Positions 42,403 to 63,195 of a stretch of 64,000 nt of DNA are shown in pieces. How positions within the stretch are numbered: position 1 is the stretch's first letter; each line of letters opens with the position of its first letter. Source of the DNA: Sediminicoccus rosea (lineage in GTDB: Bacteria > Pseudomonadota > Alphaproteobacteria > Acetobacterales > Acetobacteraceae). The stretch spans positions 2,721,501 through 2,785,500 of the forward strand of contig NZ_CP137852.1 in NCBI RefSeq assembly GCF_033547095.1, read 5' to 3'. A program made the translations under genes and the position numbers. The notes under the pieces are model-generated. The model had not been told where the DNA came from and did no database searches. It saw nothing but the letters and a program-made list of their open reading frames with translations.

Positions 42403-42421
42403 ATTGGGAGGACACTTTTCC

Positions 42422-44219: not shown

Positions 44220-44230
44220 GGCGGCGCGGC

Positions 44231-44839: not shown

Positions 44840-44845
44840 GCCGCA

Positions 44846-44867: not shown

Positions 44868-44918
44868 GCCATTCCTTTCCTCGTCGTTGCCCCCTGGCAG
44901 CGTCTGGAAAGGAAGAGC

Positions 44919-47920: not shown

Positions 47921-48210
47921 TGTTCCCCACGCCAAACGCCCCCAAGGCCGCGCCCAAGCATGCCAGCCGACCGGGCGCATGCGCCGCCATCTGGCGCGAG
48001 CAATCCAACGCCACACGCCGCGAAGCGCGCTGGCTCCTCATCCATGCGGGCGACCGGCTGACCCTGGACGAGCGGGCCATGCTGGTGGCGGTGCTGGGCA
48101 TCCGCGGCAAGATCACCGCGTCGGGCATGGGCCGAGTGCTGGCGCTCTACCGCCGCGTCACGGCTGCCGATGGGGGCGGTAACGGACAGGACACCCATGC
48201 GCGGCCGTAG
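47917..48210 (+). CDS. Unknown element protein, 97 residues
   Basis: A 97-residue basic helical protein (AIWREQSNATRREARWLLIHAGDRL). The start overlaps the previous stop by 4 bases (ATGA). A segment TLDERAMLVAVLGIRGKITASGMGRVLALYRRV could form helices around a DNA-binding turn, but this is not established. No family was recognised. Confidence 0.5.
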   Translation: MMFPTPNAPKAAPKHASRPGACAAIWREQSNATRREARWLLIHAGDRLTLDERAMLVAVLGIRGKITASGMGRVLALYRRVTAADGGGNGQDTHARP

Positions 48211-48409
48211 GATCATCCTCCGCACCCGCTTGGCAGGACGGCATTCCACCCATGAAGCCGGGCAGGCTTTCCGCGCTGCGCTGCGGCATTTGCGGCCGAG
48301 TTGGGATGACGCCCGGACACTGAACCTATGGCCGCATGTGAGCCTCACACTCCATCGGTCTGTTACGCAGACACAATTCCAGCACCGGAGGGCATTCCGA
48401 AATGGCTGA
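48197..48409 (+). CDS. Possible small basic protein
   Basis: A 70-residue arginine- and histidine-rich frame starting at 48197 and overlapping its neighbours by 14 and 8 bases. There is only weak support: CAGGAC is near the start, and it fills the only sizeable gap of the element. It may be spurious. Confidence 0.25.
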   Translation: MRGRRIILRTRLAGRHSTHEAGQAFRAALRHLRPSWDDARTLNLWPHVSLTLHRSVTQTQFQHRRAFRNG

Positions 48410-48722
48410 GAAACTCGACGCGGCGGCGCTGCGCGGGAAGGTGATCCGGCTGCACATCCTGCCGAAGCCCGAGCCCTACCGGCATATGGTCTGCATCGGT
48501 GACGATGTGGCGATGGCCCGGCCCGAGGGTGTGGTGGCAGGCCGCGGCAAGACCCATGCGTTACTGACGCACGATGAAGGCCGGGACTGGCCCAATGCCA
48601 TGGGCGAGGTCATCGCCCTGGATGCGCTGGAGCACGAAGGCGTGGTGATCCTCGCCTTCGAGACCATGCGGGACGCGCGGGCGGCGCTGCGGCGCGCCAC
48701 GGGCGAAGGGCGGGCCCGCTGA
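48402..48722 (+). CDS. Unknown element protein, 106 residues
   Basis: A 106-residue protein with no known family. It has a compact alpha/beta look (KVIRLHILPKPEPYRHMVCIGDDVAMARPEG). A good ribosome site (GGAGGG, 8 bases ahead) precedes the ATG, and the stop overlaps the helicase start by one base, which suggests that it works with the helicase. Confidence 0.6.
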   Translation: MAEKLDAAALRGKVIRLHILPKPEPYRHMVCIGDDVAMARPEGVVAGRGKTHALLTHDEGRDWPNAMGEVIALDALEHEGVVILAFETMRDARAALRRATGEGRAR

Positions 48723-50137
48723 TGGATGGCGTGCGAGAGGCTTGGTTGCGCGCCAAGGAGCAACTGCAGCCGAGCGGCCTAGACCTGGCGCTGGATGAGG
48801 CCAAGGCGCGCGTGCAGCGCGGGACCGTCTCATTCTCGGATGACGATATCGCCTGGTCCTTCACCGATCGGCACCACGCGCACCTGCTCTACGTCCCCGA
48901 ATGGGGCCACTGGCTGCGATGGGACGGGGCGCGCTGGGCCAAGGACAAGACACTCGCCGTCTATGACATGGTGCGCCGGGTGTGCCGGGAGCATGCCCAT
49001 GCGGCGCAGTTCGAGGGCAAGGCCGGCAACGAGAAGGGCCTGGCCATCGCCAGCGCGCAAAAGGTCGCCGCGGTGGAGCGCATGGCACGATCCGACCCGC
49101 GCCACGTCCGGGAGGCCGAGCTGTTTGACGCGGACCCCTGGGCGCTGAACACCCCCGGTGGCGTTGTGGATCTTCGGACGGGCGAGCTACGGCCGCACCG
49201 GCAATCCGACCACTTCACCAAGGTGACGGGCTCCACGCCCGCCGGCACCTGCCCCCGGTGGCTGCGCTTCCTGGATGAGATCACGCAAGGGGATGCGACC
49301 GTTGTCGCCTACCTGCAGCGGTGGGCCGGCTACATCTTGACCGGCACCACGCGGGAGCATGCGTTCCTCGTTCCCCACGGGCCGGGCGGCAATGGCAAGG
49401 GCGTGATGGTCAACACCCTGGCCGGCGTCATGGGGGATTATGCCACGACCGCGCCCATGGAGACCTTCATGGCCAGTCAGCACGATCGCCACCCGACCGA
49501 CCTAGCCGGGCTGCGTGGCGCGCGCCTGGTTGTGGCGCAAGAGACCGAGGCGGGCCGGGTGCTGGCCGAGGCGCGGGTCAAGGCGCTGACCGGTGGCGAC
49601 AAGATCGCGGCGCGCTTCATGCGTGGCGACTTCTTTGAGTTCACGCCCGTCTTCAAGCTGGTGATGGTCGGCAATCACCGGCCTGTCATCCGCAACCCGG
49701 ACGACGCCATGCGGCGGCGCCTCCACCTGCTGCCCCTCACCTTCAAGCCAACCCACCCGGACCACACGCTGCCCGAACGCCTCAAGGAGGAGATGCCGGG
49801 CATCCTCGCCTGGGCTGTCCAGGGGTGCCTCGCCTGGCAGCGCGAGGGCCTGGGCATGCCCGAGATCGTCCGGGACACCACGGCGGACTACTTCGCGGAG
49901 CAAGACCTTCTCGGCCAATGGCTGGCCGAGCGGTGCAAGATCGAGCCTGCCACCCTGACGGCATCGGCGGCGCTGTTCCGCGACTGGTCCGCCTGGACGA
50001 AGGACCGGGGCGAGAACCCAGGGACCAACAAGGCATTTTCGGCGGCGATGGAGCAACACCACGCCAAGCGGCGGACCAGGGAGGGCGCCATGTTCGTGGG
50101 CGTGCGCCTCCTCCCTTCCGATCGAGGGGTGGTCTGA
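48722..50137 (+). CDS. D5/P4-type phage helicase (primase C-terminal half)
   Basis: A 471-residue protein with the D5_N-like and P4 helicase domains. The region DPWALNTPGGVVDLRTGELRPH is the D5 N-terminal signature. Walker A is GPGGNGKG at 220-227, the Walker B-like segment is ARLVVAQETE near 260-270, and VGNHRP carries the sensor residue. The primase domain seen in longer P4-alpha-like proteins is absent; the first 130 residues are short and not primase-like. It would unwind DNA at the element's replication origin. Directly downstream is a large inverted repeat. Confidence 0.88.
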   Translation: MDGVREAWLRAKEQLQPSGLDLALDEAKARVQRGTVSFSDDDIAWSFTDRHHAHLLYVPEWGHWLRWDGARWAKDKTLAVYDMVRRVCREHAHAAQFEGKAGNEKGLAIASAQKVAAVERMARSDPRHVREAELFDADPWALNTPGGVVDLRTGELRPHRQSDHFTKVTGSTPAGTCPRWLRFLDEITQGDATVVAYLQRWAGYILTGTTREHAFLVPHGPGGNGKGVMVNTLAGVMGDYATTAPMETFMASQHDRHPTDLAGLRGARLVVAQETEAGRVLAEARVKALTGGDKIAARFMRGDFFEFTPVFKLVMVGNHRPVIRNPDDAMRRRLHLLPLTFKPTHPDHTLPERLKEEMPGILAWAVQGCLAWQREGLGMPEIVRDTTADYFAEQDLLGQWLAERCKIEPATLTASAALFRDWSAWTKDRGENPGTNKAFSAAMEQHHAKRRTREGAMFVGVRLLPSDRGVV

Positions 50138-50148
50138 TGAGGGGCGCT

Positions 50149-50244
50149 GTGACGGGTGTGACGGGTTCCCCCTTATCGACGTTCCGCGCGTGCGCGTGTG
50201 CGCGCCCGATACGCTTGAAATGGGAGACCCGTCACACCCGTCAC
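50149..50244. repeat. Iteron-like inverted repeat, candidate replication origin
   Basis: Two copies of GTGACGGGT in tandem at 50149-50166 and the exact complement, ACCCGTCAC twice, at 50227-50244. The 18-base arms are a perfect inverted repeat separated by 60 bases rich in alternating CG/TG. The unit repeats make iterons in both orientations, placed 11 bases after the helicase stop. This is the layout known for satellite and plasmid origins. A terminator or operator is an alternative. Confidence 0.6.
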
Positions 50245-50263
50245 ACGCGGAGAGGAGCTGACC

Positions 50264-50728
50264 ATGGATGATGTTCTGGACGGGGCGACCTGCCCCGAAA
50301 ATCCGGCCGAGTATCGGGACCAGCGCGGGCGGTTTCAGCCTGGCAATCCGGGCCGTCCGCCGGGCAGCAAGCACCCGGCATTGAAGCTGCTCGACCAGAT
50401 CGGCGAGGACAACGCGGAAGCGATCATGCAGACCCTCTGCGAGAAGGCGAAGGGCGGCGATGTGCGGGCGGCGGAAGTGCTGCTGACGCGCCTATGGCCC
50501 GCCCGGAAGGGCCGCCCCGTCACCTTCGACCTGGGCAAGCTGGAGACGGCGAAGGACGCGGCCGATGCGGCGGCGGCGGTGCTGCGCGAGGTCGCGGTGG
50601 GCAAGCTCTCGCCCGAGGAGGGCGCGGCTATCGCCGGGCTGCTCGCCGCGCATCGTGACGCCACGCAGATGGCCGAGATGGAAGCCCGGCTGGAGCGGCT
50701 GGAAGCCATCCGGGGGGCGGGCCGATGA
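50264..50728 (+). CDS. DUF5681 domain protein, terminase-neighbour type
   Basis: A 154-residue protein with the DUF5681 hallmark RFQPGNPGRPPGSK near residues 25-38, which precedes terminase and integrase-linked genes in many phages. The rest is helical and acidic, ending in a coiled coil (MAEMEARLERLEAIRG). Some phage genes of this kind act as a small terminase; here that is inference. Its stop overlaps the next gene by 4 bases. Confidence 0.7.
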   Translation: MDDVLDGATCPENPAEYRDQRGRFQPGNPGRPPGSKHPALKLLDQIGEDNAEAIMQTLCEKAKGGDVRAAEVLLTRLWPARKGRPVTFDLGKLETAKDAADAAAAVLREVAVGKLSPEEGAAIAGLLAAHRDATQMAEMEARLERLEAIRGAGR

Positions 50729-50976
50729 AGGGCCTCGACGGCATGCTGCGCCGGCTCGATCGGCTGGAGGCAGCAACCCCGGAAGTGCTGGCCCCTCGCC
50801 CGTCCTGGGTGCCTGACGCGCCCGTGGCAGCATGGCCGGCGAGCGTGTGGCGGGACCTGGCGCGATGGGTGGCCGAGCTGCGCGCCAATGGCGTGAAGCG
50901 GCCCCTCGCCTGGATGCGGACGGCCGAGCTGGTGGCCGCGCGGGATCACCTGGCAGCGATGGAGGGCGGCACATGA
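50725..50976 (+). CDS. Micro-protein of the MKGLD pair, copy 1
   Basis: An 83-residue protein beginning MKGLDGMLRRLDRLEAATPE and ending in a helix. The N-terminal block is repeated in the next gene (MKGLDAMLKRLEKLEEAA), so the two probably arose by duplication. The first 17 residues are a leucine-rich coiled-coil. No function is known. It overlaps its neighbours by 4 bases on both sides. Confidence 0.6.
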   Translation: MKGLDGMLRRLDRLEAATPEVLAPRPSWVPDAPVAAWPASVWRDLARWVAELRANGVKRPLAWMRTAELVAARDHLAAMEGGT

Positions 50977-51161
50977 AGGGCCTCGATGCGATGTTGAAGC
51001 GGCTGGAGAAGCTGGAGGAGGCCGCGGCGGGCGGGCTGCATCTGCTGTGGCAGGAGCCGGGCGTCTCGGCCGAGGCACAAGCGGCGGCCTATCGCCGGGC
51101 GAATGGCTTGCCTGAGACGGCCGAGGTGTTCGTCCTGTGCTATGCGGATGGGACGTGCTGA
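50973..51161 (+). CDS. Micro-protein of the MKGLD pair, copy 2
   Basis: A 62-residue protein starting MKGLDAMLKRLEKLEEAA. After this shared N-terminal helix the sequence is different (LLWQEPGVSAEAQAAAYRRA) and ends VFVLCYADGTC. The start overlaps the copy-1 stop by 4 bases. No family was recognised. Confidence 0.6.
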   Translation: MKGLDAMLKRLEKLEEAAAGGLHLLWQEPGVSAEAQAAAYRRANGLPETAEVFVLCYADGTC

Positions 51162-51212
51162 GGGCGGGGGCGATCTGCTAGCCTTGTCTCCTCACACCTG
51201 CGAGGGGCGCTA

Positions 51213-51443
51213 ATGGAAGACGACTTCAGGCACACGGTTGCGGGCGAGGTCGTCGCCTTGAAGGTCATCGTTCTACACCTGCTGGGGCGCTCGCCTGAAT
51301 TGCTGCCGGAACTGGCTGACGTTTTGGCTCGCCCCTTCCTTTCGCCAGACGATCCTTTGAGCCCACGAGTTGAAGCGGCGTGCGATGAGTGGCGGCGTCG
51401 GATCTTGGATGGTCGGATACCTTTGCGCGGCGAAGGTGATTGA
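51213..51443 (+). CDS. Small element protein, 76 residues
   Basis: A 76-residue acidic, helical protein (EVVALKVIVLHLLGRSPELLPELADVLARPFL). Unknown. A ribosome-like GAGGGG lies 7 bases before the ATG. It is the last gene before the right attachment region. Confidence 0.55.
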   Translation: MEDDFRHTVAGEVVALKVIVLHLLGRSPELLPELADVLARPFLSPDDPLSPRVEAACDEWRRRILDGRIPLRGEGD

Positions 51444-51512
51444 GGCGCGACCATCCGCCCGGCCCTATGGGTTTGGCGGACCTTTTCAGCCGGCAAGCGG
51501 ATTATTTTTTCT

Positions 51513-51528
51513 GGGGTCAAACGATGGG
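51513..51528 (+). repeat. Arm-type direct repeat, right
   Basis: GGGGTCAAACGATGGG matches the left repeat at 42387-42402 in 15 of 16 positions. It lies about 60 bases inside attR. Close by, GTTTTGACC (51528-51536) is a partial inverse. It is a plausible integrase arm site. Confidence 0.45.
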
Positions 51529-51590
51529 TTTTGACCGACAAAAATCCATCTTACGACAGTAATTCAAATGCTTATGGCAGACATTGGGAG

Positions 51591-51607
51591 CCCACCCTGT
51601 CCGCCAG
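51591..51607 (+). repeat. attR, 17-bp direct repeat of tRNA-Ser 3' end
   Basis: CCCACCCTGTCCGCCAG, identical to 42245-42261. It marks the right boundary of the element. Confidence 0.9.
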
Positions 51608-51895: not shown

Positions 51896-52813
51896 TCACT
51901 CCTCCTCCGAGAAAAAATCTTCGTCGAGACGCTTGAACTCAACGGTTCGGCTGATTCGCACCCCGACACCGTGCTCGACCATCAGTTCGGTTAAGCGCTT
52001 CCCGTTGATCAGCACCACGCGCTGCGGGATCCTCGATGCAAAGTCGATGGCCTGGGCCGAGAACGCGGAGGTCGTCACAAAGACCCCCTTCGAGGCGCCG
52101 AGGCCGACGAGGCTACCGGTAAATGCCTGGATCTCCGGCCGCCCGATGGTGCTGCCAGGCGCGTGCCGCTTGGCCTGCACATAGACCCGATCGAGACCGA
52201 GGACGTCCTCATTGATCACGCCATCGACGCCGCCATCACCGGACTTGCCGAGCTGCTCCGCAGCATTCAGACGCGATCCCCCGTAGCCCATGGCCACCAG
52301 AAGTTCGACGATCAATTGCTCAAAGAAGGCAGGGCTATTCTGCAGGATTCTTCCCAAGAGTTCATCGCGCAGTGCCGCCTGAAGGGCTTTATGGGCAGCG
52401 TCAACGACTTCTTCGGGTGTCGCGACCGGTGGCTCCACCTCCATGACCGGATGGGCGGCACCGGCTTCCTCCTCGCCGCGGTAGAAGTCGCGGAAGGCCG
52501 GGATTGCCAGTAGGTATTTCGTATTGAGCTCTGGCGGCGGGCTGGCGAGCACTTTTCTGCCCGCATCGGTAATCACAAAGCGGCCCCGCTTTGGGCTTTC
52601 GAGCAAACCTGCCTTGGTCAGATAAAATTTGGCCCAGTGCAGCCGGTTGTGCAGGATCCGCTGCTTTCCGCTGGGGAGCATTTGCTCGCGTTCTTCGGCG
52701 GTGAGACCAAAGCGCTGTCCAATCTCGTCGGCTGCCAAAGGAACCGAGGACTCACCCTTCGCGCCGATCTCGAGAACCGGCAGCATGAGGGATTGGTAAT
52801 CAGGCATCGCCAT
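51896..52813 (-). CDS. mrr: Mrr-family restriction endonuclease
   Basis: A 305-residue protein with the Mrr architecture: an N-terminal winged-helix (Mrr_N; LHNRLHWAKFYLTKAGLLESPKRGRFVITDAG, about 54-85) and a C-terminal PD-(D/E)xK domain. Catalytic residues are visible in FEQLIVELLVAMGY (Glu165 region), GDGGVDG (Asp193/Asp197) and QAK (213-215). Mrr-type enzymes cleave modified DNA. The start at 52813 is the first ATG; a second ATG two codons later is possible. It begins 4 bases after the PLD-like stop. Confidence 0.92.
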   Translation of the reverse strand: MAMPDYQSLMLPVLEIGAKGESSVPLAADEIGQRFGLTAEEREQMLPSGKQRILHNRLHWAKFYLTKAGLLESPKRGRFVITDAGRKVLASPPPELNTKYLLAIPAFRDFYRGEEEAGAAHPVMEVEPPVATPEEVVDAAHKALQAALRDELLGRILQNSPAFFEQLIVELLVAMGYGGSRLNAAEQLGKSGDGGVDGVINEDVLGLDRVYVQAKRHAPGSTIGRPEIQAFTGSLVGLGASKGVFVTTSAFSAQAIDFASRIPQRVVLINGKRLTELMVEHGVGVRISRTVEFKRLDEDFFSEEE

Positions 52814-52817
52814 CGTT

Positions 52818-54119
52818 TCAGTCCCCCGGCGGCCGGCCGGTCCCTGCGCGTTCAGTACCCCGCTGACCGCCGCGGCGGCGGCGCCACGAAAACACAATGA
52901 ACGATCCTGATGAAGGGTCAGCGTCCCACAACACCAACTGGTTTGCCTCCTGTGCGGCGGGGCCGACACGCTGGAGCCCCTGGACGCGCAGCCACCGCTG
53001 CCCTACCCGCGGCAAGAGATCAGCTGGCACAGTGACTTCCTGCCCCCCGTCGATGCGTGAAGGGACCAGAGCATCGTCATAGACCGGCGCCCACTCGGCT
53101 TTTCCTCGGTCGAACAGATACTCAAATGCACCGGGGATACTGCCTTGGACACGAACGCTGACCTGCTGCATTCCAGGTGCCGGCCTTGGGCGAAACGGCC
53201 GCGTCGCGGGCTTGAGATCAGGCTGCCTGCGATTGTCGATGTGGAAATCTGCAAGGAGCTCAACTCCGCCGCGCTCCATCTGTAGCCCGTCAATCACGCA
53301 GACGAGCTTCGCTTTGGCAGAGTCAAGCTGAAGCAATGCCACAGCCGGCGTAGCGGGTAACGGGTCGAAGACGTAGATGTGCACCTCGGGTCGAAGGGAG
53401 TTGAACTCCATGAGTGCCTTCGACATTTCAAAGTAAATAACGTCGCCAATTTTCGGCAGTGGTCCCGATGCGCGGGCCGCGAGGACAACGATGGTCTGCT
53501 TGTTCTCCGTATCGGAGGGCGGACGTCCAATCTCGACCTTCAGTCCCTCGACGTACTGTGTGGTCCACCAAGCGTAGGCTTCCTTCAAATCGCTATCGTA
53601 CGCGGTGGCCTGGGCAACGCACTCGGCGATATGGCGCCGGAGCGCGACAAATTCCGGTTCATCGACGCCGCCCTCGATCAGCACCCCAGCCTCGCCGTTC
53701 AAACCGAGCAGAGCGAAGCCAGTCAGATTGTGTGAGCCAACGAACGCCGACGCCGTGCCGTCAGCCATCTCCAAAAGATAGACCTTGCTGTGCAGCATGG
53801 GGCGGTAGCGGTGGAAGGGATTGTCCCTGCCTCCGCTCGGTCCACTGAACCCGAGATGCACATGCAACCGGTCTGGCGGCACTCCCGCATCCAGGAGGCC
53901 ATCAAAAGCCTGGAAGGCCTGGTAGGTGCCTGCACCGATGACCAGTGCGGTCAGTTTGCCAGGACCCCTATGAAGGGGTTCAGCGATGGCCTCGATTCCC
54001 GCCGAAGTCATGAAGCCCGCTACCAGGGAAGCTGACCGACAGCGGGTGAGTCGGTCGCGCAGGAGCGAGGCGATTTCGTGCTGCGGCTGATCGAACAGAA
54101 TCTGGACGGTGACGGTCAT
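52818..54119 (-). CDS. Phospholipase-D-like nuclease-type protein
   Basis: A 433-residue PLD-fold protein. A single HKD-type motif is at HSKVYLLEMADG (H110, K112) with GSHNLTGFAL at 128-137. One motif only, so activity would need a dimer or a second site. N-terminal 150 residues form the PLDc domain; the C-terminal half (about 250-430) is of unknown fold. The start overlaps the hsdR stop by 4 bases. PLD-fold proteins in defence loci often act as nucleases or phospholipases, but the activity here is inference. Confidence 0.82.
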   Translation of the reverse strand: MTVTVQILFDQPQHEIASLLRDRLTRCRSASLVAGFMTSAGIEAIAEPLHRGPGKLTALVIGAGTYQAFQAFDGLLDAGVPPDRLHVHLGFSGPSGGRDNPFHRYRPMLHSKVYLLEMADGTASAFVGSHNLTGFALLGLNGEAGVLIEGGVDEPEFVALRRHIAECVAQATAYDSDLKEAYAWWTTQYVEGLKVEIGRPPSDTENKQTIVVLAARASGPLPKIGDVIYFEMSKALMEFNSLRPEVHIYVFDPLPATPAVALLQLDSAKAKLVCVIDGLQMERGGVELLADFHIDNRRQPDLKPATRPFRPRPAPGMQQVSVRVQGSIPGAFEYLFDRGKAEWAPVYDDALVPSRIDGGQEVTVPADLLPRVGQRWLRVQGLQRVGPAAQEANQLVLWDADPSSGSFIVFSWRRRRGGQRGTERAGTGRPPGD

Positions 54120-57100
54120 GCTGCGGGCGGCGTCCGATTCTGAGCCCGTTTAGCAGCCGTGAACAGCCGCTCTTGCAGCCACGCCTTGAACGACTTGTCC
54201 GTATTGTAGAGTGCATACAGATCCGTGTGATCGGCTAGGCTGCCTAGCAGCTCATCATCGACGGCCCGGTCGTGTTCGATGCGCGCGTTCTGATTGTCGC
54301 TATTCCGCAGCGCATTTTGCACTCGCCCGTTTGCGCCAATCTTTTCTGGCAACTCCTCAAACAGGAACCGGGTGACACGGTCTTGGTCCCGAAACTCCGT
54401 GGCGCCGAAGCGTTCATTGAAGTCACGAATCACGCTGCTGAGTTGGTCGACATCTGGCTCCGGGCGGCCGCCCGCGGCACCCGTGGGAACGGGCTCGATC
54501 TCCGCATCGGCGTCTGCCAAGGCGATCTGCATGGCCGCCTCGATTTCGACCCGATAGCTGTCCATGTCGATCGTTTGGAGCACGTCGACCGGCGTTTCGT
54601 TGCTCGTGGGACTTGGCAACTTCGGGATCAGTAGCTTTAGGAAAGTCGATAGCTTCTCCCATTCGGGCACGGCATACGGCAGGATCGCGCCGAGGAAGGC
54701 ATAGGTCCGAACGAACGCCTTGGCCGCACCCTTGAACGCAATCTGGTCGTCTTCCGGAAGCCCTTCGTAGTGCGCTGAGCATGCATCGAGGATGGGGTCC
54801 ACCTGGTCGCGGGGCGCCGCTTGCAGGAACAGTGCGACTAGGGCCTCGACGTCGGCGTCAGTGTAGACGCCTGCCTCGTCGAGACCACGTTTCAGGTCGT
54901 GAAGCTTGTTGGGATCGGTCTCGCCCGAGAGGATTGTCGTTCGATAAAAGTCCGAAAACGCGGCTTCGATGACGGCGGCATCATTGCGAAAGTCCAGCAC
55001 GACCGGCTCGGTCTTCCCCGGCCGAGAGCGGTTGAGCCGTGACAACGCCTGCACCGCTTTGACGCCGGCAAGCGTCTTGTCGATGTACATCGCGAACAGT
55101 TTAGGCTGATCAAACCCGGTCAGATATTTGTCCGCGACGACCAGGAATCGATAGGGGTCGGCGTCGAACTTTTCCTCCAGATCGCTGCTCGGAAATCCGT
55201 TAAACGACGCCTCCGTACGCTGCTGGCCTGCGTCATCGACGCTTCCGGAAAATGCGATGATCGCCTTGTAGGGTGAGCCGCGCTTAGCAAGAGCTGCGTT
55301 GATCGCCCGCCAATAATCGATCGCCCGCTCGATGCCGTCTGCAGCCATCATTGCGCGTGCTTCGCCGCCGACCTTACGCCGGGCAATCACTTGGTCGAGG
55401 AAGTGATCGACGACGATTCCGGCCTTCGTGGCGACCGCGTGGTCATGCCCTTCGACGTAGTGGCGCAAGGCTTTCAGCGTGCGGGACACATCGACTTCGG
55501 GGTCATCAGCCGCCGTCTTGGCGAGGCGGTAATAGCTTGATACCGGCGTGTAGTGCTTCAGAACGTCGAGAATGAACTCCTCCTCGATGGCCTGCTTCAT
55601 CGAGTAGAGGTGGAACGGGCGACGTTTCACCACCCCGTCCGCCTCATAGCGCTCGCCGAACAGCTCCAGGGTCTTGTTCTTCGGCGTCGCGGTGAAAGCG
55701 AAGTAGCTGGCGTTGTCCAGCATACGTCGGCCTTCGATGATGGCGAGGATGCGGTCCTCGGTCGTCATCTCGTCGTCCGCGGCGCTGCCGCCAAGTGCCG
55801 TGTTCAGCGCCCCGGCCGAACGCCCGCCCTGACTGGAATGTGCCTCGTCGATCACGATGGCGAAGCGGCGACCGCGATGGGTGCTGCCGATATCGTCCAG
55901 GATGAAGGGAAACTTCTGCACCGTCGTGACGACGATCTTCTTGCCGCTTTCGATGAAGGTGCGGAGGTCGCCGGATCGCTCGGCATGGCCCATCAGGCGT
56001 GCGGTCTGCGCAAAGCCACCGATGGTATCCTTCAGGTTCTTATCGAGCACCTGGCGGTCGGTCACCACGATGACGGTATCGAAAACCGACGCGCCTGCGC
56101 GCTCCAGCCCGACAAGCTTGTGCACAGTCCAAGCAATGGAGTTGGATTTGCCGGAGCCGGCAGAATGCTGGATCAGGTAGCGCCTGCCTGGGCCGTGTTC
56201 GGTGGCGTTAGCGCAAAGCGCCCGAACGACATCGAGCTGGTGGTAGCGAGGAAAAATCGGCTTACGTGCGGTGACCCGCCCGCGAGCGTCCCGCTCCTCG
56301 ATGATTCCAGCGAAGTTCTCGATGATATCGGCGAGACTGCGCTTGGCCAGCACCTGGCGCCAAAGGTAATCGGTCTTGATGCCCCCGGGATTGGGCGGGT
56401 TTCCAGCGCCGTCGTTCCATCCGCGATTGAACGGCAGGAACCAGCTTTTCTGGCCGGCGAGGTGGCTGCACATCCGCACCTCGCGGTCATCGACTGCGAA
56501 GTGAACCGCGCAACGGCCGGAACGGAAAATGAGCTCCCTGGGGTCACGGTCCGTCTTGTACTGCGCCTCGGCGTGGGCGACGGACTGGCCGGTCAAGCTG
56601 TTCTTCAGCTCGAAGGTGGCAAGCGGCACGCCGTTGACGAACAGGCCCAGGTCGAGCGCGCGTCGCGCAGTATCCTGCGAGTAGCCGAGTTGCCGCGTGA
56701 CAGAGAAGCGATTGGCGGCAAAGCGCGTCTCGGCCTGTGAGTTGCCGGGTGAAGGAAGCGGGAAATAGAGCGTCACCGCGTGCGCGCCATGGCGGACGCC
56801 GGAGCGGAGGACGTCGATGACACCGCGATTGGTGATCTCGTCGCGGATCCGGGCGAGAAAGCCGCGGCGTTGGGGGCCGTCGGAGTCCAGCGAGAGCGTG
56901 CCGACCAACTCGGGCTGGGTAGCGCGGAGGAAGGCGATCAGCTGGACGAGATCGAGCGCGTGGACGCGGTCGTAGTCGTCGCGATGGCCTTCGATATAGC
57001 AATCAGGGGCAGCAGAGGGTGCCCGCCCGTCCGTGACGTCGGGCCTTGCGTGCACGATAGGCACCCCCGTGCCGGTCAGTGCGGCGACAATCAGCGCCTC

Positions 57101-57133
57101 CAGTCCGCCCTCACTCACATCAGTCGACCGCAT
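54116..57133 (-). CDS. hsdR: Type I restriction enzyme R subunit
   Basis: A 1005-residue HsdR. The nuclease core is at the N-terminus: VNGVPLATFELKN (E175-x-K177). The helicase has Walker A AGSGKS at 325-330, DEAH at 429-432, FAFTATP (motif III) and later QALSRLNRSRPGK (motif VI). It translocates DNA and cuts far from the site when the target is unmethylated. The ATG at 57133 has GGAGG 9 bases upstream; it overlaps hsdS by 14 bases. Another ATG at 57142 is possible. Confidence 0.95.
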   Translation of the reverse strand: MRSTDVSEGGLEALIVAALTGTGVPIVHARPDVTDGRAPSAAPDCYIEGHRDDYDRVHALDLVQLIAFLRATQPELVGTLSLDSDGPQRRGFLARIRDEITNRGVIDVLRSGVRHGAHAVTLYFPLPSPGNSQAETRFAANRFSVTRQLGYSQDTARRALDLGLFVNGVPLATFELKNSLTGQSVAHAEAQYKTDRDPRELIFRSGRCAVHFAVDDREVRMCSHLAGQKSWFLPFNRGWNDGAGNPPNPGGIKTDYLWRQVLAKRSLADIIENFAGIIEERDARGRVTARKPIFPRYHQLDVVRALCANATEHGPGRRYLIQHSAGSGKSNSIAWTVHKLVGLERAGASVFDTVIVVTDRQVLDKNLKDTIGGFAQTARLMGHAERSGDLRTFIESGKKIVVTTVQKFPFILDDIGSTHRGRRFAIVIDEAHSSQGGRSAGALNTALGGSAADDEMTTEDRILAIIEGRRMLDNASYFAFTATPKNKTLELFGERYEADGVVKRRPFHLYSMKQAIEEEFILDVLKHYTPVSSYYRLAKTAADDPEVDVSRTLKALRHYVEGHDHAVATKAGIVVDHFLDQVIARRKVGGEARAMMAADGIERAIDYWRAINAALAKRGSPYKAIIAFSGSVDDAGQQRTEASFNGFPSSDLEEKFDADPYRFLVVADKYLTGFDQPKLFAMYIDKTLAGVKAVQALSRLNRSRPGKTEPVVLDFRNDAAVIEAAFSDFYRTTILSGETDPNKLHDLKRGLDEAGVYTDADVEALVALFLQAAPRDQVDPILDACSAHYEGLPEDDQIAFKGAAKAFVRTYAFLGAILPYAVPEWEKLSTFLKLLIPKLPSPTSNETPVDVLQTIDMDSYRVEIEAAMQIALADADAEIEPVPTGAAGGRPEPDVDQLSSVIRDFNERFGATEFRDQDRVTRFLFEELPEKIGANGRVQNALRNSDNQNARIEHDRAVDDELLGSLADHTDLYALYNTDKSFKAWLQERLFTAAKRAQNRTPPAA

Positions 57134-58496
57134 CGAGCGCATCCTCCAGTTCTTCGGCGCCGGTCGCGGCGTCATGGGACAGGTCACCTTCGACGATGGG
57201 TATGACGGCGTTGCGCACATCGAGCTGTCCCGTCACGACGGCGGCAATCAGGCTGTCGCGGTATTCGACGATGAGGTCGATTTCTCGTACGACCTTATCT
57301 TTGGCCGCATCGATCGACCTCAATTCTTCATTGAGCATACGACAAATATCGCCCTGCTCCACTCGCGCTGGTAAAGGAATTACGGCGGTCCCTATTTCGT
57401 TCTTTCCGATGCCGTACCGCGTGATACCGGTAGCGGTCTTGTGGAACTGCCATGTTGTGGGTGCAGCTAGCAGAGCAAAATAAAGATAATCACCGGAGAT
57501 ATGCTCTGTGTTTGGTCGAAGGATCGCTAGATGATATCCGCAAACAGCGTTAGGGATATCATCAGTCACGAGGCATGGAACGCAGATGTCCTTCCAATCC
57601 TCGGAATCCTTAGTTACTAGAACGTCACCAGCCTTCAGCGAGTAGCTGGCATACTCAGATTCTGTTACAGAACCTTCGCGAAATGGCGTGGCAGGTCCGA
57701 CACTGTCATTTTTGTACACGTCGACATAGTGGCAAACGCGGACTTGCCGTTCATGCTCGTAGGTATGCTTGTCGACGCTGCTGAACGATACGCTCGCAAG
57801 CCGCTTAATGGCACGCAATGGCCAATCCGAGTTGCAAGGGGTTGGAGAAAGCCCCGCGTCGCCGAATGCGTAGAGACGGCTCGTGATAATCGAGCGCTTT
57901 CGCTCAATCAGCGCGGCAATGATGCGGCGCTTACCGGCGATGAGGCGCTGGACCTGAGTGGTGTAGGCGTCGAGGTAATCGGCAATCCGCTCTTGCTCTT
58001 CGGGAGGGGGGGCGGGCGACAGCATTGGCTTGAAATACTGCCAATAGAGCCGATTACGATCGGGGACTATCCCCCGGGAGGCGAAATCGACCTCGCGCAT
58101 GTAGGCGGATGTGCGGAACAAATAAGTGTAGAAGCGTGAATCGACGCCATCGAATGGCTTCGCAACGACATAGGCGGGACTGATCAACCCGTCGCAGGGC
58201 GCAATACCCACGGCGCCCTGCCACATCCGCATGATGTTGTAGGCGATATCGCCTTGGGCCGCGCGCTTGTACTTGGCGCGGTCCGCCATCTGCTGCTTGC
58301 GTCCGCCCTCCATGTCACGAATGCGAACTCCTGTCCGCAGTGAGACTTCCAGAATGGGCAGATCGGGAAAGCCTGTCTCGTTGCGCTCGGCAAAAAGGCG
58401 TCCGTTACGCACCACCTCCCAGTGCGTCGGCACCCGCGGAAGCCAGTCGACGCCACTGTCCCGATACTGGGAGTATGGCCTCAGCGCCGTGCTCAT
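57120..58496 (-). CDS. hsdS: Type I restriction-modification specificity subunit
   Basis: A 458-residue HsdS with two target recognition domains separated by conserved coiled-coil regions: PPPEEQERIADYLDAYTTQ at about 163-181 and PARVEQGDICRMLNEELRSID near 375-395. Each TRD reads half of a split recognition sequence; the target cannot be read from the protein. Start overlaps the hsdM stop by 4 bases (ATGA). The C-terminus is acidic and overlaps the hsdR start. Confidence 0.95.
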   Translation of the reverse strand: MSTALRPYSQYRDSGVDWLPRVPTHWEVVRNGRLFAERNETGFPDLPILEVSLRTGVRIRDMEGGRKQQMADRAKYKRAAQGDIAYNIMRMWQGAVGIAPCDGLISPAYVVAKPFDGVDSRFYTYLFRTSAYMREVDFASRGIVPDRNRLYWQYFKPMLSPAPPPEEQERIADYLDAYTTQVQRLIAGKRRIIAALIERKRSIITSRLYAFGDAGLSPTPCNSDWPLRAIKRLASVSFSSVDKHTYEHERQVRVCHYVDVYKNDSVGPATPFREGSVTESEYASYSLKAGDVLVTKDSEDWKDICVPCLVTDDIPNAVCGYHLAILRPNTEHISGDYLYFALLAAPTTWQFHKTATGITRYGIGKNEIGTAVIPLPARVEQGDICRMLNEELRSIDAAKDKVVREIDLIVEYRDSLIAAVVTGQLDVRNAVIPIVEGDLSHDAATGAEELEDALDAVD

Positions 58497-60859
58497 GCCT
58501 CAGCCTCGACAAGCACGACGTCGAGAAGTGCCTGAGTCTGGCGTTCCAACGCGTCGATCTCGGCCTTGATCTCGGCGAGCGGGCGCGGAGGCTTAGGCTT
58601 ATAGAAGTGCCGCGCGAACGAGATTTCATAGCCGATTTTCGTCTTGTCACGGTCGATCCAGGCGTCAGCTGCATGGGGCAGCACTTCGCGCTTGAAGAAC
58701 GCCTCGATGCCGCCGGCCTCGTCGAACGCCACGATCTCGGTATCCGACAGCGCCTTGTCCGGCTCGTAGGCTACCACCGCCGGCTTGCCTTTCATGGTGA
58801 CCGCGAAGAGCCCGCCGTGCGGATCGGCGGCCTTCTTCGATACCGATTTGACGATCGGCTTGGCATCTGCGGCACGCCAGCTCATCGCCCGCGCGATCAG
58901 CCGCGCCTCAGCGGGCTTCAGCGCGAGCTTTTCTGCCTTGATCACAGCGGCAAGCTTCGCTTCGAACGCGGCAAAATCGTCATGCTCGGCCTGGCCAATA
59001 AGTGCCATCAGCCGCTCCGCAGCGCGGTGCAGGCGACGATCACGTGCCCAGGTGCCAGCGTCGAGTAGCTTCTTGATGGTCTTGCGCGGCAGCTTCGGCG
59101 TGGCGTCCTCGGTCTCGGCAGCTGCGTCCTCGCCGTCCGCGCTCGCCTCTTCCTCACCCTCGGCGGCCTCCTCGCCTTCCGGCTCAGGCGGGTCAAGATG
59201 CGCCTTCAGCCGCTCAGCGACGCTGGCGAAATCGTCAAACAGCGCATCGCCGAACTCGGCATGGAGCGCCTCGCGCAGAGCGCGGTGCCCGCTCTGGAAG
59301 CGCAGCGCGTCCACCGCCTCCCGCGTGAAGCGCGAGCGGAGCCGCAGCGGGCGCTCGACGACGATTTTCCAGTAGCCGAAGGACGAGTTGGGCAGCACGA
59401 TCGACGTGTCGCTCGTCTCCATCGTCTCATAGGCATCGAGCACGGCTTGGATGTGCTCGGCGGTCATCTCGCAATTGCGCTTGCCCAGATTCCGACGGAG
59501 CGGTCGGAACCACTTGGTCGCGTCGATGAGCTGCACCTTGCCCTTACGGGCCTCAGCCTTGCGGTTACTCAATACCCAGACATAGGTGGCGATGCCGGTG
59601 TTGTAGAAAATATTGAGCGGCAAGGCGACGATCGCCTCGAGCCAGTCGTTCTCGATGATCCAGCGGCGGACATTGCTCTCGCCTGAACCGGCCTCACCCG
59701 TGAACAGGGCCGATCCGTTGTGAACGTCGGCAATGCGCGATCCGAGCGGGGTGTCCTTCATCTTGGACAGCTTGTTGACGAGGAAGAGGAGCTGGCCGTC
59801 CGACACGCGCGGCAACAGGCGCAGCCGATCGTCTTCGTTGGCCAGCCCCTCATGTTCGACCACAAAGCGGGGATCGTTCGCGGCGGCCTTGCCGCCCATG
59901 TCCGCAAGGTCGATCTTCCAGGTTGTCCCGAACGGGGGATTGGCCATCATGAAGTCGAACTTCAGCCCGTTTCGGCCGTGGACATCGGCGGACAGGGTCG
60001 AGCCGAAGGCGATGTTGCGGGCTTCTTCGCCCTCGCCTTTCAGCAGGAGGTCGGCCTTGCAGATGGCGTAGGTCTCGGGGTTCAGTTCTTGGCCATAGAG
60101 GTGGATTTCAGTCTTCTTCCCCTCCTTGCGGGCGAGCTCGCGCAGCTTGGCTTCGCCGACCGTCAACATGCCACCGGTGCCGCAGGCGTCATCATAGAGA
60201 AGATAGGTGCCGTCGCCGATGCGATCCTTAGCGGGGCGGAACACCAGCTCCGCCATCATCTCCACGATGTCGCGTGGCGTGAACTGTTCACCGGCGCCCT
60301 GGTTGTAATCTTCGTTGAAGCGACGGAGCAGCTCCTCGAAGATCGTGCCCATGGTGTGGTTGTCGAGGCCGGGCAGACGCACTCGGCCCTGATCGTCTCG
60401 GACCGGCGTTGGGGCGAGATTGATCCGCTCATCGCAGAATTTCTCGATCAACGCATGAAGGCGATTATGCTCGGCAAGCCGCCCGAGCTCCTCGCGAAAC
60501 TTGAAGCGCGCGAGGACTTCCCGGACGTTTTCGGAGAAGCCGTCCAGATAGGCCTCGAAGTCGGCCTTCTGTGTCTCGGGGTTGGGTCGGGCCAGAAGCT
60601 GGCGCAGGGTGAAGGGCGAGCGATTGTGAAAAGCTTGACCGGCCGCACGATCGAGTGCGGGACCCTGTGCGGCTTCCGGAACGCCGGCTGCGTCGAGCTC
60701 TGCTTTTCGTGCCAGGACGGCGGCGCGGGTGGGTTCGAGCACCGCGTCCAAGCGCCGGATGACCGTCATCGGCAGGATGATGTCGCGATACTTGGTGCGG
60801 TCGTAAACATGATGGAGCACGTCATCCGCGATGCTCCAAATGAAGCCGTTGATGTTCAT
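58493..60859 (-). CDS. hsdM: Type I restriction-modification methyltransferase subunit
   Basis: A 788-residue N6-adenine methyltransferase. Motif I is DACGTGGM at 224-231 and motif IV is NPPF at 307-310, both intact. The N-terminal HsdM helical domain starts INGFIWSIADDVLHHVYDRTKYRDIILPM. It has a long C-terminal extension of about 250 residues containing an acidic glutamate-rich stretch (near 610-650), longer than typical HsdM (about 500). The ATG at 60859 starts the conserved N-terminus. hsdS overlaps its stop by 4 bases. Confidence 0.95.
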   Translation of the reverse strand: MNINGFIWSIADDVLHHVYDRTKYRDIILPMTVIRRLDAVLEPTRAAVLARKAELDAAGVPEAAQGPALDRAAGQAFHNRSPFTLRQLLARPNPETQKADFEAYLDGFSENVREVLARFKFREELGRLAEHNRLHALIEKFCDERINLAPTPVRDDQGRVRLPGLDNHTMGTIFEELLRRFNEDYNQGAGEQFTPRDIVEMMAELVFRPAKDRIGDGTYLLYDDACGTGGMLTVGEAKLRELARKEGKKTEIHLYGQELNPETYAICKADLLLKGEGEEARNIAFGSTLSADVHGRNGLKFDFMMANPPFGTTWKIDLADMGGKAAANDPRFVVEHEGLANEDDRLRLLPRVSDGQLLFLVNKLSKMKDTPLGSRIADVHNGSALFTGEAGSGESNVRRWIIENDWLEAIVALPLNIFYNTGIATYVWVLSNRKAEARKGKVQLIDATKWFRPLRRNLGKRNCEMTAEHIQAVLDAYETMETSDTSIVLPNSSFGYWKIVVERPLRLRSRFTREAVDALRFQSGHRALREALHAEFGDALFDDFASVAERLKAHLDPPEPEGEEAAEGEEEASADGEDAAAETEDATPKLPRKTIKKLLDAGTWARDRRLHRAAERLMALIGQAEHDDFAAFEAKLAAVIKAEKLALKPAEARLIARAMSWRAADAKPIVKSVSKKAADPHGGLFAVTMKGKPAVVAYEPDKALSDTEIVAFDEAGGIEAFFKREVLPHAADAWIDRDKTKIGYEISFARHFYKPKPPRPLAEIKAEIDALERQTQALLDVVLVEAEA

Positions 60860-60953
60860 GCCGCCATCTCGCAATGAATCAGGCCGTTGATAGGACTCTC
60901 GTATCCCACTGCATACCGATCGCTGAATTTTCCCATGGTGAGCTTGAGCACGG

Positions 60954-62930
60954 TTATGCACCTCCCGAGTAAATCGCGTTTTCTGGAGTGGCCGCGTCCA
61001 TCTCGGGCCAAATCGTCTTCTGTCGTTGAATCAGCTGTTGGCGCATCTCCTGGATCTTTTCCTGCATGTCGAAGATCGCACTCATCTGCGCTGCGATGGC
61101 GCCCTGCGCCTCGGCGGATGGCACCAGCACCGGAAGGCGTCGCAGGTCTGCCATCTGCAGTCCGGAGATCACCGAGCCGACCTTGAGGCTCTGCACCGTC
61201 ACCTGGCCCATGGAGGACGAAAGGAAGCGGAACAGGATGGCCGGGTCGATGATTGGTCCACGTCGACGAAGCCGCAGGATGGCGAAGCTCTGGCTGGCGA
61301 GCCAGGCGGGACCATCGGGGATGTCGCGCACGAAGCCGACCTTTCCGACGCTGCCCTTGATGACGATCAGCACATCGCCGGGCTCCAGTCTCGCGCGCCT
61401 GGTGCGCTGGAGAAGTTCATCGCTGGCAGGAACCGACGTCGTCGGCATGCGCACCACGCCGGCGTCGTCGATGTCGCCGACCCCGACTTCAAGCAGCACG
61501 CCGTCGCTTCTGTCCGAGACATCAGTTTCGCGGCTTTCGCGGCCGGCGCGATCGCGGCCTACCAGCAGCGCCTGCGGACGGCTGATCTCCGCCACGTCTT
61601 CGAGCGGCACAGCTTCGGCGTTTGCCAGAAGGTCACGCATGCGGCGGGCCTCTGAATCGAGCACGTAGCGCTCGACGGAGAGATTGAAGTCGTGCCCGGC
61701 GATCTCGTCGGCAGAAGCCAGTACGGAGAAATCGGTCTCAGTGTGGTGCTGCAGGATGTCAGCGAGGTCCCGAATGGTGGAAAAGCGACCGATCGTGGAT
61801 GGCCGCGACTTATCCCGCTCCCGCTCCGGTCGCCCGTCGACCATGAGGACGCGCTGCTGCTGGCGCATCCACGGATGGACTTTGGCCTTCGGGCGGAAAA
61901 CAAGCATTGCGACCTGGATCAACGACGACGAGGGGAACGCGTCCCTCGGCAGGCTAATGACCGCGTCCAGGCCGAAGAGCCGAATGGCCTGCTCCTTGAA
62001 CGCCTGATCCGCTTTGGTCGTGCGAAAGAGGAAACCAGTCGGGAGAAGGCACACAGCGGCGCGGCGGCCGCGTGCCAGCGCCAGCGCCACGTACTGCCCC
62101 TCTGCCACGCCGGGCTGCGGGAGGTTGGTGCCGAGGCTTCGGTAATCTTCGCCGCGGCTTCGCATGCCAACGGGCGGGAAAACGATCGCGGCATCGTAGC
62201 TTTCCTGTTCCGCGAACAGCTCCTGATCTACGTTTGCTGGCTCGGTTAAGGGGTCGCGTTCCCGGACGATCAGCGGCAGATCATCGGCGACAGCGATGCA
62301 TGCGCAGATGCCTGCAAGCCAGCCCTCCTCAACATCGAGGGTGACCTGGACGCCTCGGGTCTCGGCGATGTGCGTAGCGACGATGGCCGTCATCCCATAG
62401 GCGCAATAGACGTGCTGCGCTTCGGTGGGGTCGATCGCCGTTGCGATGAGCTGGCAAAGCTCGAAGCTGGCAATGGAGGCGGACAGGGCCCGGTCGCCAC
62501 TGGCGGCCAGGAGGGCGCGCCGAATCCAGCCGCGCATCGGCGACACCGCATCTGCCGCCTCCCCCTTCTTGACATGGGTGGCGAGCGCGAGGCGCCTAAG
62601 TCGCTCGAGGTGACCTGGCGGAAGAGGTTGGGATACCGGTGAAAATGTCGCCCCCGGCGCTCGCCAAGCCTGGGGCCATGCGGCAGGCAAACGGTCCAGC
62701 ATCGCTTGCCAGTCGGGGGCCGTCAGCTCCCTCTCCATGTCGAGGAAGCCCATGGCATTCGGGCCAGACACAGGAAGCAGGCGCGCCGCAACGCGCATCT
62801 GCGCCACGGTCAAAACAAGTGACGCTAGATCCTGACCACTCTCGGCTGCGGCGCGCTGCAGCTCGTGCTGGAAGGTCCGGATCAGCTCCATCTGCCCCGA
62901 CGGCGAGGTGAGCTGGTGATCAGCGTGCAT
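60954..62930 (-). CDS. Degenerate N6-methylase fused to an HsdS-like domain
   Basis: A 658-residue protein. The N-terminal part looks like an HsdM-type methylase, but motif I reads YCAYGMTAI (175-183) instead of DPxxGxGG and the catalytic NPPF is replaced by VFPPVG (250-255). So it is probably inactive as a methylase. The C-terminal part (about 440-640) looks like one specificity-subunit half: a TRD-like segment (LEPGDVLIVIKGSVGKVGFV) and a trailing coiled coil (EAQGAIAAQMSAIFDMQEKIQEMRQQLIQRQ). The start at 62930 overlaps the small gene upstream by 11 bases. The role is unknown. Confidence 0.75.
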   Translation of the reverse strand: MHADHQLTSPSGQMELIRTFQHELQRAAAESGQDLASLVLTVAQMRVAARLLPVSGPNAMGFLDMERELTAPDWQAMLDRLPAAWPQAWRAPGATFSPVSQPLPPGHLERLRRLALATHVKKGEAADAVSPMRGWIRRALLAASGDRALSASIASFELCQLIATAIDPTEAQHVYCAYGMTAIVATHIAETRGVQVTLDVEEGWLAGICACIAVADDLPLIVRERDPLTEPANVDQELFAEQESYDAAIVFPPVGMRSRGEDYRSLGTNLPQPGVAEGQYVALALARGRRAAVCLLPTGFLFRTTKADQAFKEQAIRLFGLDAVISLPRDAFPSSSLIQVAMLVFRPKAKVHPWMRQQQRVLMVDGRPERERDKSRPSTIGRFSTIRDLADILQHHTETDFSVLASADEIAGHDFNLSVERYVLDSEARRMRDLLANAEAVPLEDVAEISRPQALLVGRDRAGRESRETDVSDRSDGVLLEVGVGDIDDAGVVRMPTTSVPASDELLQRTRRARLEPGDVLIVIKGSVGKVGFVRDIPDGPAWLASQSFAILRLRRRGPIIDPAILFRFLSSSMGQVTVQSLKVGSVISGLQMADLRRLPVLVPSAEAQGAIAAQMSAIFDMQEKIQEMRQQLIQRQKTIWPEMDAATPENAIYSGGA

Positions 62931-63195
62931 GGATGCGGCCGCGGTCAAAGGAGTCGACGTCGTATGCGGTGATCAGGGCGCCGTCCGCCTGCACGACTAT
63001 GACGCCCCCCTTATCGAGCGCCTGCATGGCAGTGCGCTGCAGATCGCGAAGCTCATCGATGAGCTGCATGAGCCCCCGCCGCCCGAGGACGCATTTGTCC
63101 TGCGCATCCTCTCCAAATTGAAGGGTGAGGTCGACGAGCGCCTGCTTGATCCCGCGCTGGGACATTCGCCGCCCGATGTGTCGTGTCCTAGCCAT
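62920..63195 (-). CDS. Small protein at the head of the RM operon, DUF4258-like
   Basis: A 91-residue protein: RHIGRRMSQRGIKQALVDLTLQFGEDAQDKC, then helical, and VIVVQADGALITAYDV at the end. The H...R..RGI...D pattern and terminal beta strands recall DUF4258/RelE-like folds, so it could be toxin-like or regulatory. GGAGG lies 6-7 bases before the ATG. It starts the operon and overlaps the next gene by 11 bases. Confidence 0.65.
   Translation of the reverse strand: MARTRHIGRRMSQRGIKQALVDLTLQFGEDAQDKCVLGRRGLMQLIDELRDLQRTAMQALDKGGVIVVQADGALITAYDVDSFDRGRIHAR

What the first reader, a model, noticed from the sequence alone, without database searches (positions are those of the whole stretch)
51896..63195. 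Augmented type I restriction operon with PLD-like and Mrr nucleases
Seen: hsdM, hsdS and hsdR are complete and intact (motif I, NPPF, Walker A, DEAH, ELK) and are followed, with 4-base overlap or gap, by a single-HKD PLD-fold protein and an Mrr-family endonuclease; they are preceded by a degenerate methylase-specificity fusion and a small protein. Known: type I systems need only R, M and S; Mrr cuts modified DNA; PLD-fold proteins occur as DISARM drmC. Inference: the extra genes form one combined defence unit covering unmodified and modified invader DNA. This is the best candidate for an undescribed system in the window.
Basis: partly seen in the sequence, partly recalled or inferred. Interest (0 to 1): 0.72.

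Follow-up and report, generated by a model that had tools for sequence, protein, structure and literature searches.

The report
Toxin-like pair heading restriction operon
An ordinary bacterial DNA-cutting defence operon is headed by a small toxin-like gene paired with a dead DNA-methylase relative, a two-gene module that recurs in front of unrelated defence operons and may guard them; the two extra nuclease genes at the other end look like ordinary cargo.

Summary
All seven genes are real, open and in one direction. [quoted passage not shown] In the genomes searched, the complete seven-gene set occurs in one other only (Roseomonas sp. CECT 9278). Of 24 related hsdR loci from a 385-genome class sample, none shows the PLD gene or the fusion pair; mrr follows hsdR in 2 of the 20 with enough sequence. 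hsd with mrr at one locus is known from E. coli. The only other PLD relative found (49%) stands alone.

The surprising part is the other end. The small protein is DUF4258-like, a family that a 2025 survey lists among RelE/ParE (BECR) toxins. The "degenerate" fusion is no wreck: it is under purifying selection, and methylase motif IV is lost in 19 of 19 members read. The two genes recur as a pair in 17 other loci, mostly in front of type I operons of several kinds. In near relatives the pair stays 93-100% identical while HsdS specificity, or the whole RM system, is exchanged.

Best reading: a toxin-antitoxin-like module with a pseudo-methylase partner, possibly guarding RM islands. No activity is shown, and a structure search did not confirm the BECR fold.

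The parts
62920..63195 (-). small 91-aa DUF4258-like protein (sml), predicted BECR-type RNase toxin
   Evidence: Pfam DUF4258 E 7e-4, 20.3 of 25 bits; 12 of 14 members of its family hit DUF4258 at E <= 0.01, best 1.4e-6; H6, R10, Q13, R14, G63, G64, T76 invariant in 14
60954..62948 (-). M/S fusion: pseudo N6-adenine methylase with a single target-recognition domain; start 62948 (TTG) or 62930 (ATG), overlapping sml
   Evidence: N6_Mtase + Methylase_S; NPPY replaced by FPPV, motif I region CAYGMT; dN/dS 0.18 vs L027
58493..60859 (-). HsdM, catalytic motifs intact (frame opens at 60961)
   Evidence: PADLOC MTase_I 789 bits; DDACGTGG, NPPF
57120..58496 (-). HsdS; its second half (TRD2) differs from the Roseomonas sp. 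CECT 9278 copy
   Evidence: PADLOC Specificity_I 241 bits; identity profile; blastn gap 57277-57896
54116..57220 (-). HsdR (frame start 57220; likely start about 57133)
   Evidence: HSDR_N, SWI2_SNF2, T1R_D3-like; NCBIfam hsdR 181 bits, below its cut-off of 284.55; motifs
52818..54119 (-). single-HKD PLD-fold nuclease-like protein of 433 aa
   Evidence: HSKVYLLEMADGTASAFVGSHNLTG...E; RE_NgoFVII E 0.003; dN/dS 0.11 vs L026
51896..52813 (-). Mrr-type restriction endonuclease
   Evidence: Mrr_N 7.8e-28, Mrr_cat 1.5e-33; mREase_IV 332 bits
63196..63357 (-). region in front of sml; TTGATT-17-TAGATA promoter-like element read by eye just in front of the ATG
   Evidence: sequence; this element is not among the hits of the consensus scan; no supported operator

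Best explanation
The locus is an ordinary type I RM operon (hsdM-hsdS-hsdR) with two cargo nucleases (PLD, mrr) behind it and a separate two-gene module in front. In the module a small BECR-type protein (DUF4258-like, predicted RNase toxin) is paired with a pseudo-methylase/specificity fusion that has lost SAM and catalytic motifs but keeps a DNA target-recognition domain. Most likely the fusion binds and neutralises the small protein and controls the pair's own expression, as an antitoxin does, and the pair stabilises or guards the RM island it travels with. Shown: the pair, its recurrence, the lost motifs, purifying selection on the fusion, and its independence from the RM specificity behind it. 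Inferred: RNase activity, neutralisation, autoregulation, guarding. My estimates: the pair is a real module 0.9; sml is an RNase-type toxin 0.6; the fusion is its neutraliser 0.45; guarding of RM 0.3.
For: Pair: of 13 informative sml loci among the 15 found in the collection of 84,980 species genomes, 11 have the fusion or its split form adjacent; of 10 plasmid fusion loci opened, 6 have sml just in front. In 13 of 17 sml+fusion loci (window and its two near relatives included) type I genes follow in the same direction. Cassette behaviour: L026 keeps sml 100% and fusion 99% while HsdS residues 241-420 fall to 22-33%; L027 keeps sml 99% and fusion 93% but carries another type I system. In L029 the pair, in split form, stands without RM genes; in L031 the order is reversed. 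Dead methylase: no N/D at the first place of motif IV in 19 of 19 read, while all 7 neighbouring HsdMs read have NPPF/Y. Toxin side: DUF4258 is listed as a BECR RelE/ParE family with unknown target (PMC11980606, passages); [quoted passage not shown] H6 in helix 5-13 and T76 in the fourth strand fit this. Relatives sit on plasmids, some of only 8-12 kb; two have a partner with weak RHH-type hits, and one of these two small proteins matches the sml profile at hhalign E 3e-31.
Against: Foldseek of the sml model (mean pLDDT 79.7, but 54 over residues 1-10, where H6 lies) finds no PDB match at E <= 0.001, best 1.2; an HMM search of the PDB finds no RelE/ParE. sml itself is below Pfam's DUF4258 cut-off. 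PMC11980606 gives antitoxin-first order for DUF4258; here the small gene is first. Four of 10 plasmid fusion loci have no sml. Eight opened sml relatives on Acinetobacter, Aeromonas and Moraxella plasmids pair with other genes: two RHH-like, two LRAT, one DUF3944, three unknown; this fits a mobile small gene with many partners. Operator test: the window's palindrome is no better than shuffles, and though 5 of 26 promoters have a strong inverted repeat their spacings differ. The genome scan used a profile built from RM-linked members, so RM linkage is biased upward. Samples of the class and the phylum found the fusion in the own genome only (1 of 385; 1 of 398).
Confidence: 0.45

Rival explanations
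1. DNA-guided effector: the fusion's recognition domain brings the small protein, acting as a nuclease, to specific DNA sites of invaders, so the pair is a minimal defence system of its own.
For: A target-recognition domain is kept (pLDDT mostly 76-93 over residues 481-600); the pair sits among restriction genes, in L038 beside McrBC on the other strand; conserved polar residues in sml.
Against: BECR enzymes are described as endoRNases in PMC5512222 (passages). No methylation partner would protect own DNA, since the fusion is motif-dead and does not follow the specificity of HsdS.
Confidence: 0.2
2. Regulatory or structural accessory of the RM enzyme: the pseudo-M/S joins HsdM or HsdS complexes or represses the hsd promoter, delaying restriction in a new host; the small protein helps.
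For: Directly in front of and co-directional with type I genes in 13 of 17 loci. A small repressor, RptR, in front of type I operons is known (PMC12255303, abstract and passages).
Against: The pair stays 93-100% identical while the RM behind it is of another family or specificity, also precedes an R-M-S operon with EcoEI-type HsdR (L032), and stands without type I genes in the stretch held in L012 and L029. No supported operator.
Confidence: 0.2
3. One reading: all seven genes form one combined defence unit against unmodified and modified DNA.
For: Complete and in order in a second genome, with purifying selection on PLD and HsdR, and Mrr 100% identical.
Against: 0 of 24 hsdR relatives show PLD or the pair, Mrr in 2 of 20; PLD stands alone in G123; no PLD relative in 72,556 plasmid records.
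Confidence: 0.1
4. Decayed remnants: the fusion is a broken leftover of an older RM system with no function.
For: Both catalytic motifs are gone; in L033 the fusion is in several frames.
Against: The same motif loss is found across three phyla with an open frame of 538-664 aa in 17 loci; dN/dS 0.18.
Confidence: 0.05

Closest known systems
DUF4258 toxins of the RelE/ParE (BECR) superfamily, type II toxin-antitoxin
   Same: small size, N-terminal His, C-terminal T-x-Y, tightly coupled two-gene order, relatives on plasmids
   Different: partner is a 540-660 aa pseudo-methylase/specificity fusion instead of a small DNA-binding antitoxin; small gene first, where PMC11980606 gives antitoxin first; weak similarity to Pfam DUF4258
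Type I RM (hsdMSR) with mrr, as in the E. coli immigration control region
   Same: hsd genes and a modification-dependent Mrr nuclease at one locus (PMC12707154 passages; that mrr neighbours hsdR in K-12 is recalled)
   Different: here mrr is co-directional, directly behind a PLD gene, and the sml/fusion pair stands in front
CamA and type IIG BpuSI (single-chain methylase plus recognition domain)
   Same: overall chain order, Foldseek E 4e-11 and 3e-16
   Different: motif I and IV lost, no nuclease domain
RptR and DarTG2 within type I operons
   Same: a small gene at the head of type I RM; a toxin-antitoxin pair within an RM island (PMC12255303, abstract)
   Different: RptR is described as helical; sml is predicted alpha/beta with an enzyme-like residue pattern; DarTG2 is ADP-ribosylation based (recalled)

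Membership tests
Type I restriction-modification system | HsdM with SAM motif and NPPF/Y, HsdS, HsdR with nuclease and helicase motifs | tested here: met
Type II toxin-antitoxin (DUF4258, BECR) | sequence membership of DUF4258 | tested here: inconclusive
   E 7e-4, 20.3 of 25 bits; 12 of 14 relatives hit at E <= 0.01; two plasmid relatives pass the cut-off (L006, L007)
Type II toxin-antitoxin (DUF4258, BECR) | BECR fold | tested here: inconclusive
   secondary structure and His/Thr placement fit; Foldseek finds no match
Type II toxin-antitoxin (DUF4258, BECR) | tightly linked conserved partner gene | tested here: met
   11 of 13 genome loci; 6 of 10 plasmid fusion loci; other partners in 8 of 8 opened Acinetobacter/Aeromonas/Moraxella relatives
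Type II toxin-antitoxin (DUF4258, BECR) | toxicity and neutralisation | not testable with these tools
   needs the bench
N6-adenine methyltransferase (for the fusion) | (N/D)PP(F/Y) and the motif I glycines | tested here: not met
   0 of 19 keep N/D of motif IV; motif I glycines lost in the profile alignment to EcoR124II HsdM
DISARM | drmA, drmB and a true DrmC | tested here: not met
   no DrmA or DrmB in the tables shown (for three of seven proteins only the best 25 rows); PLD scores 15.5 of 133 bits for DrmC
MADS | MAD2 and MAD5 above cut-off | tested here: not met
   39.3 of 720 and 39.3 of 400 bits
Mrr-type modification-dependent nuclease | Mrr_N plus Mrr catalytic domain with D...QxK | tested here: met
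   site description PMC12707154 (passages)

The most novel reading that the evidence does not exclude
A new class of toxin-antitoxin module whose antitoxin is a catalytically dead type I methylase/specificity fusion, specialised to ride at the head of type I RM operons of any family and specificity and to guard them: loss or inactivation of the island, or a phage protein that binds type I enzymes, would free the toxin.
Probability: 0.25. Interest if true: 0.78.

Novelty: new variant of a known kind. Interest (0 to 1): 0.52.

Why it matters
If true, the pair would be a guard module for a very common large defence system, with a neutraliser built from the same protein type that phage anti-restriction proteins bind; phage evasion of type I enzymes could then trigger cell suicide. 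It would also give a function to proteins that NCBI labels only "type I restriction-modification system subunit M/S". The PLD/mrr tail alone would be ordinary.

Tried and rejected
Seven-gene unit: rejected as a general system. The fusion as an active methylase: rejected. The fusion as a pseudogene: rejected. An autoregulatory operator: the window has CGTCCT-N14-AGGACG, but 25 of 60 mononucleotide shuffles give a repeat as good; of 26 promoters, 5 (L006, L007, L017, L024, L029) have a perfect 10-base inverted repeat at p <= 0.02, with gaps from 3 to 21, so no common pattern. BECR confirmation by structure search failed, and by PDB profile search too. DISARM and MADS: rejected. Mobile collections: no PLD relative confirmed in viral contigs (phage records not searched for PLD); two fusion queries found none in viral contigs, although one viral contig with the pair, L025, came in through the small protein; no fusion in phage records at E <= 1e-8; no small protein in phage records. 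"Esub1" (PDB 8vsq/8vsr), a half-HsdS-like structural match to the fusion, could not be followed in the paper library. Literature: DUF4258 with restriction-modification gives 2 papers, neither on this pair in the passages read; the listings showed nothing on it.

The genome scan rests on two peptide patterns.
Full report
What is there. The seven genes of the finding are present, open and co-directional on the minus strand. Domain scans give DUF4258-like (weak), N6_Mtase plus Methylase_S, HsdM, HsdS, HsdR, a PLD-type protein (weak NgoFVII/DrmC similarity) and Mrr. Catalytic motifs of HsdM, HsdR, PLD and Mrr are present. Likely starts are 52813 for Mrr and 60859 for HsdM.

How general is the tail? 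I anchored on HsdR in 385 genomes of the class: 22 genomes, the own one included, match at E <= 1e-100, in 25 places including the window (at most two candidates per genome were scored). I fetched the regions of the 24 others and compared their ORFs of 60 aa or more with the window's and the plasmid proteins at E <= 1e-4. None shows PLD, the fusion or the small gene. Nineteen hold at least 0.8 kb in front of hsdM and 20 hold at least 0.8 kb behind hsdR (not L052, L079, L097, L098). Mrr is the next gene behind hsdR in two of these 20 (L085, 80% identical; L088, 47%). A strict HKD pattern search in these 24 loci and eight others also finds none. PLD relatives: none in 72,556 plasmid records; 2 of 147 genomes, one being the own; in 13 genomes of related loci only L026's genome and G123. 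In G123 the PLD gene (49%) has no window-type neighbour in 19 kb and Mrr is on another contig. The review PMC12707154 (passages) describes the immigration control region as holding hsdRMS with mrr and other type IV enzymes; so hsd with mrr is known.

The one full copy. L026 (Roseomonas sp. CECT 9278) has all seven genes in order: sml 100%, fusion 99%, HsdM 99%, HsdS 61%, HsdR 94%, PLD 94%, Mrr 100%. The HsdS difference lies in the second half (residues 241-420: 22-33%; residues 1-120: 97-98%). dN/dS is 0.08 for HsdR and 0.11 for PLD, so PLD is a maintained gene; Mrr and sml are too similar between the two to measure selection.

The head of the operon. A scan of the genome collection (84,980 species) with a profile of four small proteins (window, L005, L006, L010) found 15 loci. 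In 13 of them the neighbourhood is informative (L030 and L035 end too soon). Eleven have the fusion beside the small gene (L026, L027, L028, L032, L033 in pieces, L036, L037, L038, L040) or as two genes, half-S plus pseudo-M (L029, L031); L034 and L039 do not, and L039's small gene is a fragment. L025, from the viral collection, appears to repeat L027 and is not counted. From the other side, tblastn with the fusion finds 18 plasmid records. I opened 10 (not the two duplicates H3 and H4, nor six partial hits H13-H18); six have the small gene directly in front (L005, L006, L007, L010, L012, L014) and four do not (L009, L011, L013, L015). A second fusion query brought no further full-length plasmid member. 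Together with the window this gives 18 loci with both. Leaving out L031 (a 3.4 kb contig), type I genes follow in the same direction in 13 of 17; in L036 an insertion with a transposase-like frame (recognised by eye) lies between. In L007 they lie in front; in L012, L029 and L038 there are none in the stretch held, though L038 has McrBC on the other strand. The type I systems behind differ: window-like M-S-R, another M-S-R in L027, and R-M-S with EcoEI-type HsdR in L032. Because the scan profile came from RM-linked members, this linkage is biased upward. In even samples the fusion was seen in the own genome only: 1 of 385 of the class, 1 of 398 of the phylum.

A natural experiment. L027 (Roseococcus sp. 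SYP-B2431) shares 91-93% DNA identity with the window genome and L026 from the recombinase genes through the small gene and the fusion, and then breaks off into an unrelated type I system. L026 keeps the fusion at 99% but has another HsdS second half. So the fusion does not follow the specificity or family of the RM enzyme. This speaks against it being a subunit that reads the same sites and for a self-contained cassette.

The fusion is a pseudo-methylase. In the profile alignment to EcoR124II HsdM the NPPY motif falls on fppl and DPAAGSG on a sequence without the glycines. In 17 full-length fusions and 2 split ones, none has N or D at the first place of motif IV; in the pieces of L005, L014 and L033 the site was not aligned, but no NPPF/Y pattern occurs in the pieces searched. 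All 7 neighbouring HsdMs read have NPPF or NPPY. dN/dS between window and L027 is 0.18, between window and L026 0.34 on very few changes. AlphaFold gives a moderate model (mean pLDDT 64; recognition domain mostly 76-93) matching HsdM, BpuSI and CamA.

The small protein. It is weakly DUF4258; 12 of 14 family members reach E <= 0.01. PMC11980606 (passages) lists DUF4258 among BECR-fold type II toxins, target unknown, gene order antitoxin first. [quoted passage not shown] H6 and T76 are invariant in 14 of 14 sequences and lie in helix 5-13 and in the fourth strand, 73-78. Against this, the model is weak at residues 1-10 (pLDDT 54), Foldseek finds no PDB match (best E 1.2) and no RelE/ParE appears by sequence profile. 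On plasmids, 23 records hold relatives: 8 belong to the fusion set and 15 are Acinetobacter, Aeromonas or Moraxella. Of eight of these 15 opened, none has the fusion; partners are weakly RHH-like (L022, L024; that DUF1564 and DUF6290 are RHH-type is recalled), LRAT (L021, L023), DUF3944 (L019) or unknown (L017, L018, L020). The L024 protein is the same family (hhalign E 3e-31).

Mechanism. The tight two-gene coupling, order reversal in L031, copies without RM, plasmid relatives, enzyme-like conservation of the small protein and loss of catalysis in the large DNA-binding partner are what a toxin with a neutralising partner would show. I hold this at 0.45 and the further step, guarding of RM islands, at about 0.3. 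A guided nuclease and a regulator of RM are the main rivals. The operator test gave no support, which weakens the autoregulation part.

Setting. A serine recombinase and a DUF2924 gene lie across and beyond the window end and are shared with L026 and L027. At the other end the block shared with L026 stops at window 51591, at a 17-bp copy of the tRNA-Ser(TGA) 3' end; in L026 it stops at tRNA-Ser(GCT). The operon therefore probably sits on mobile DNA.

Novelty. The searches of the paper library showed no description of the pair in the listings and passages I saw; NCBI annotation calls the large protein "subunit M/S" or "N-6 DNA methylase" and the small one DUF4258 or hypothetical. I rate it a new variant of a known kind: toxin-antitoxin-like logic with an unusual partner, joined to ordinary type I RM.

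Noticed in passing
window 42171-51607: tRNA-Ser(TGA) with a tyrosine integrase at 42398-43690 and a D5-type primase-helicase at 48722-50137, bounded by a 17-bp direct repeat of the tRNA end (42245 and 51591): a 9.3 kb satellite- or prophage-like element abutting the operon. The 16-base core occurs without mismatch at one further place in the genome.
   Followed up: partly
L074 6083-6175: In Roseomonas sp. CECT 9278 the same operon block ends at a different serine tRNA gene, tRNA-Ser(GCT).
   Followed up: partly
G000 contig C2, 15889-16446 (L001): The own genome has a second type I HsdR N-terminal domain on a 16.9 kb contig.
   Followed up: no
L011 9374-9571 and L013 6195-6392: In two cyanobacterial plasmids the fusion has no small gene in front but a 65-aa gene directly behind, possibly another partner.
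   Followed up: no
L021, L022: Relatives of the small gene sit near viperin-family genes, and further fragments of the same small family lie nearby.
   Followed up: no
L019, L021, L023: DUF4258-like genes followed by LRAT or DUF3944 proteins on Acinetobacter and Moraxella plasmids: possible further pairs, literature not searched.
   Followed up: no
L027 12254-14355 and L005 13756-19531: HsdM of L027 reads in two overlapping frames and several RM genes of the Roseomonas mucosa plasmid are in pieces.
   Followed up: no
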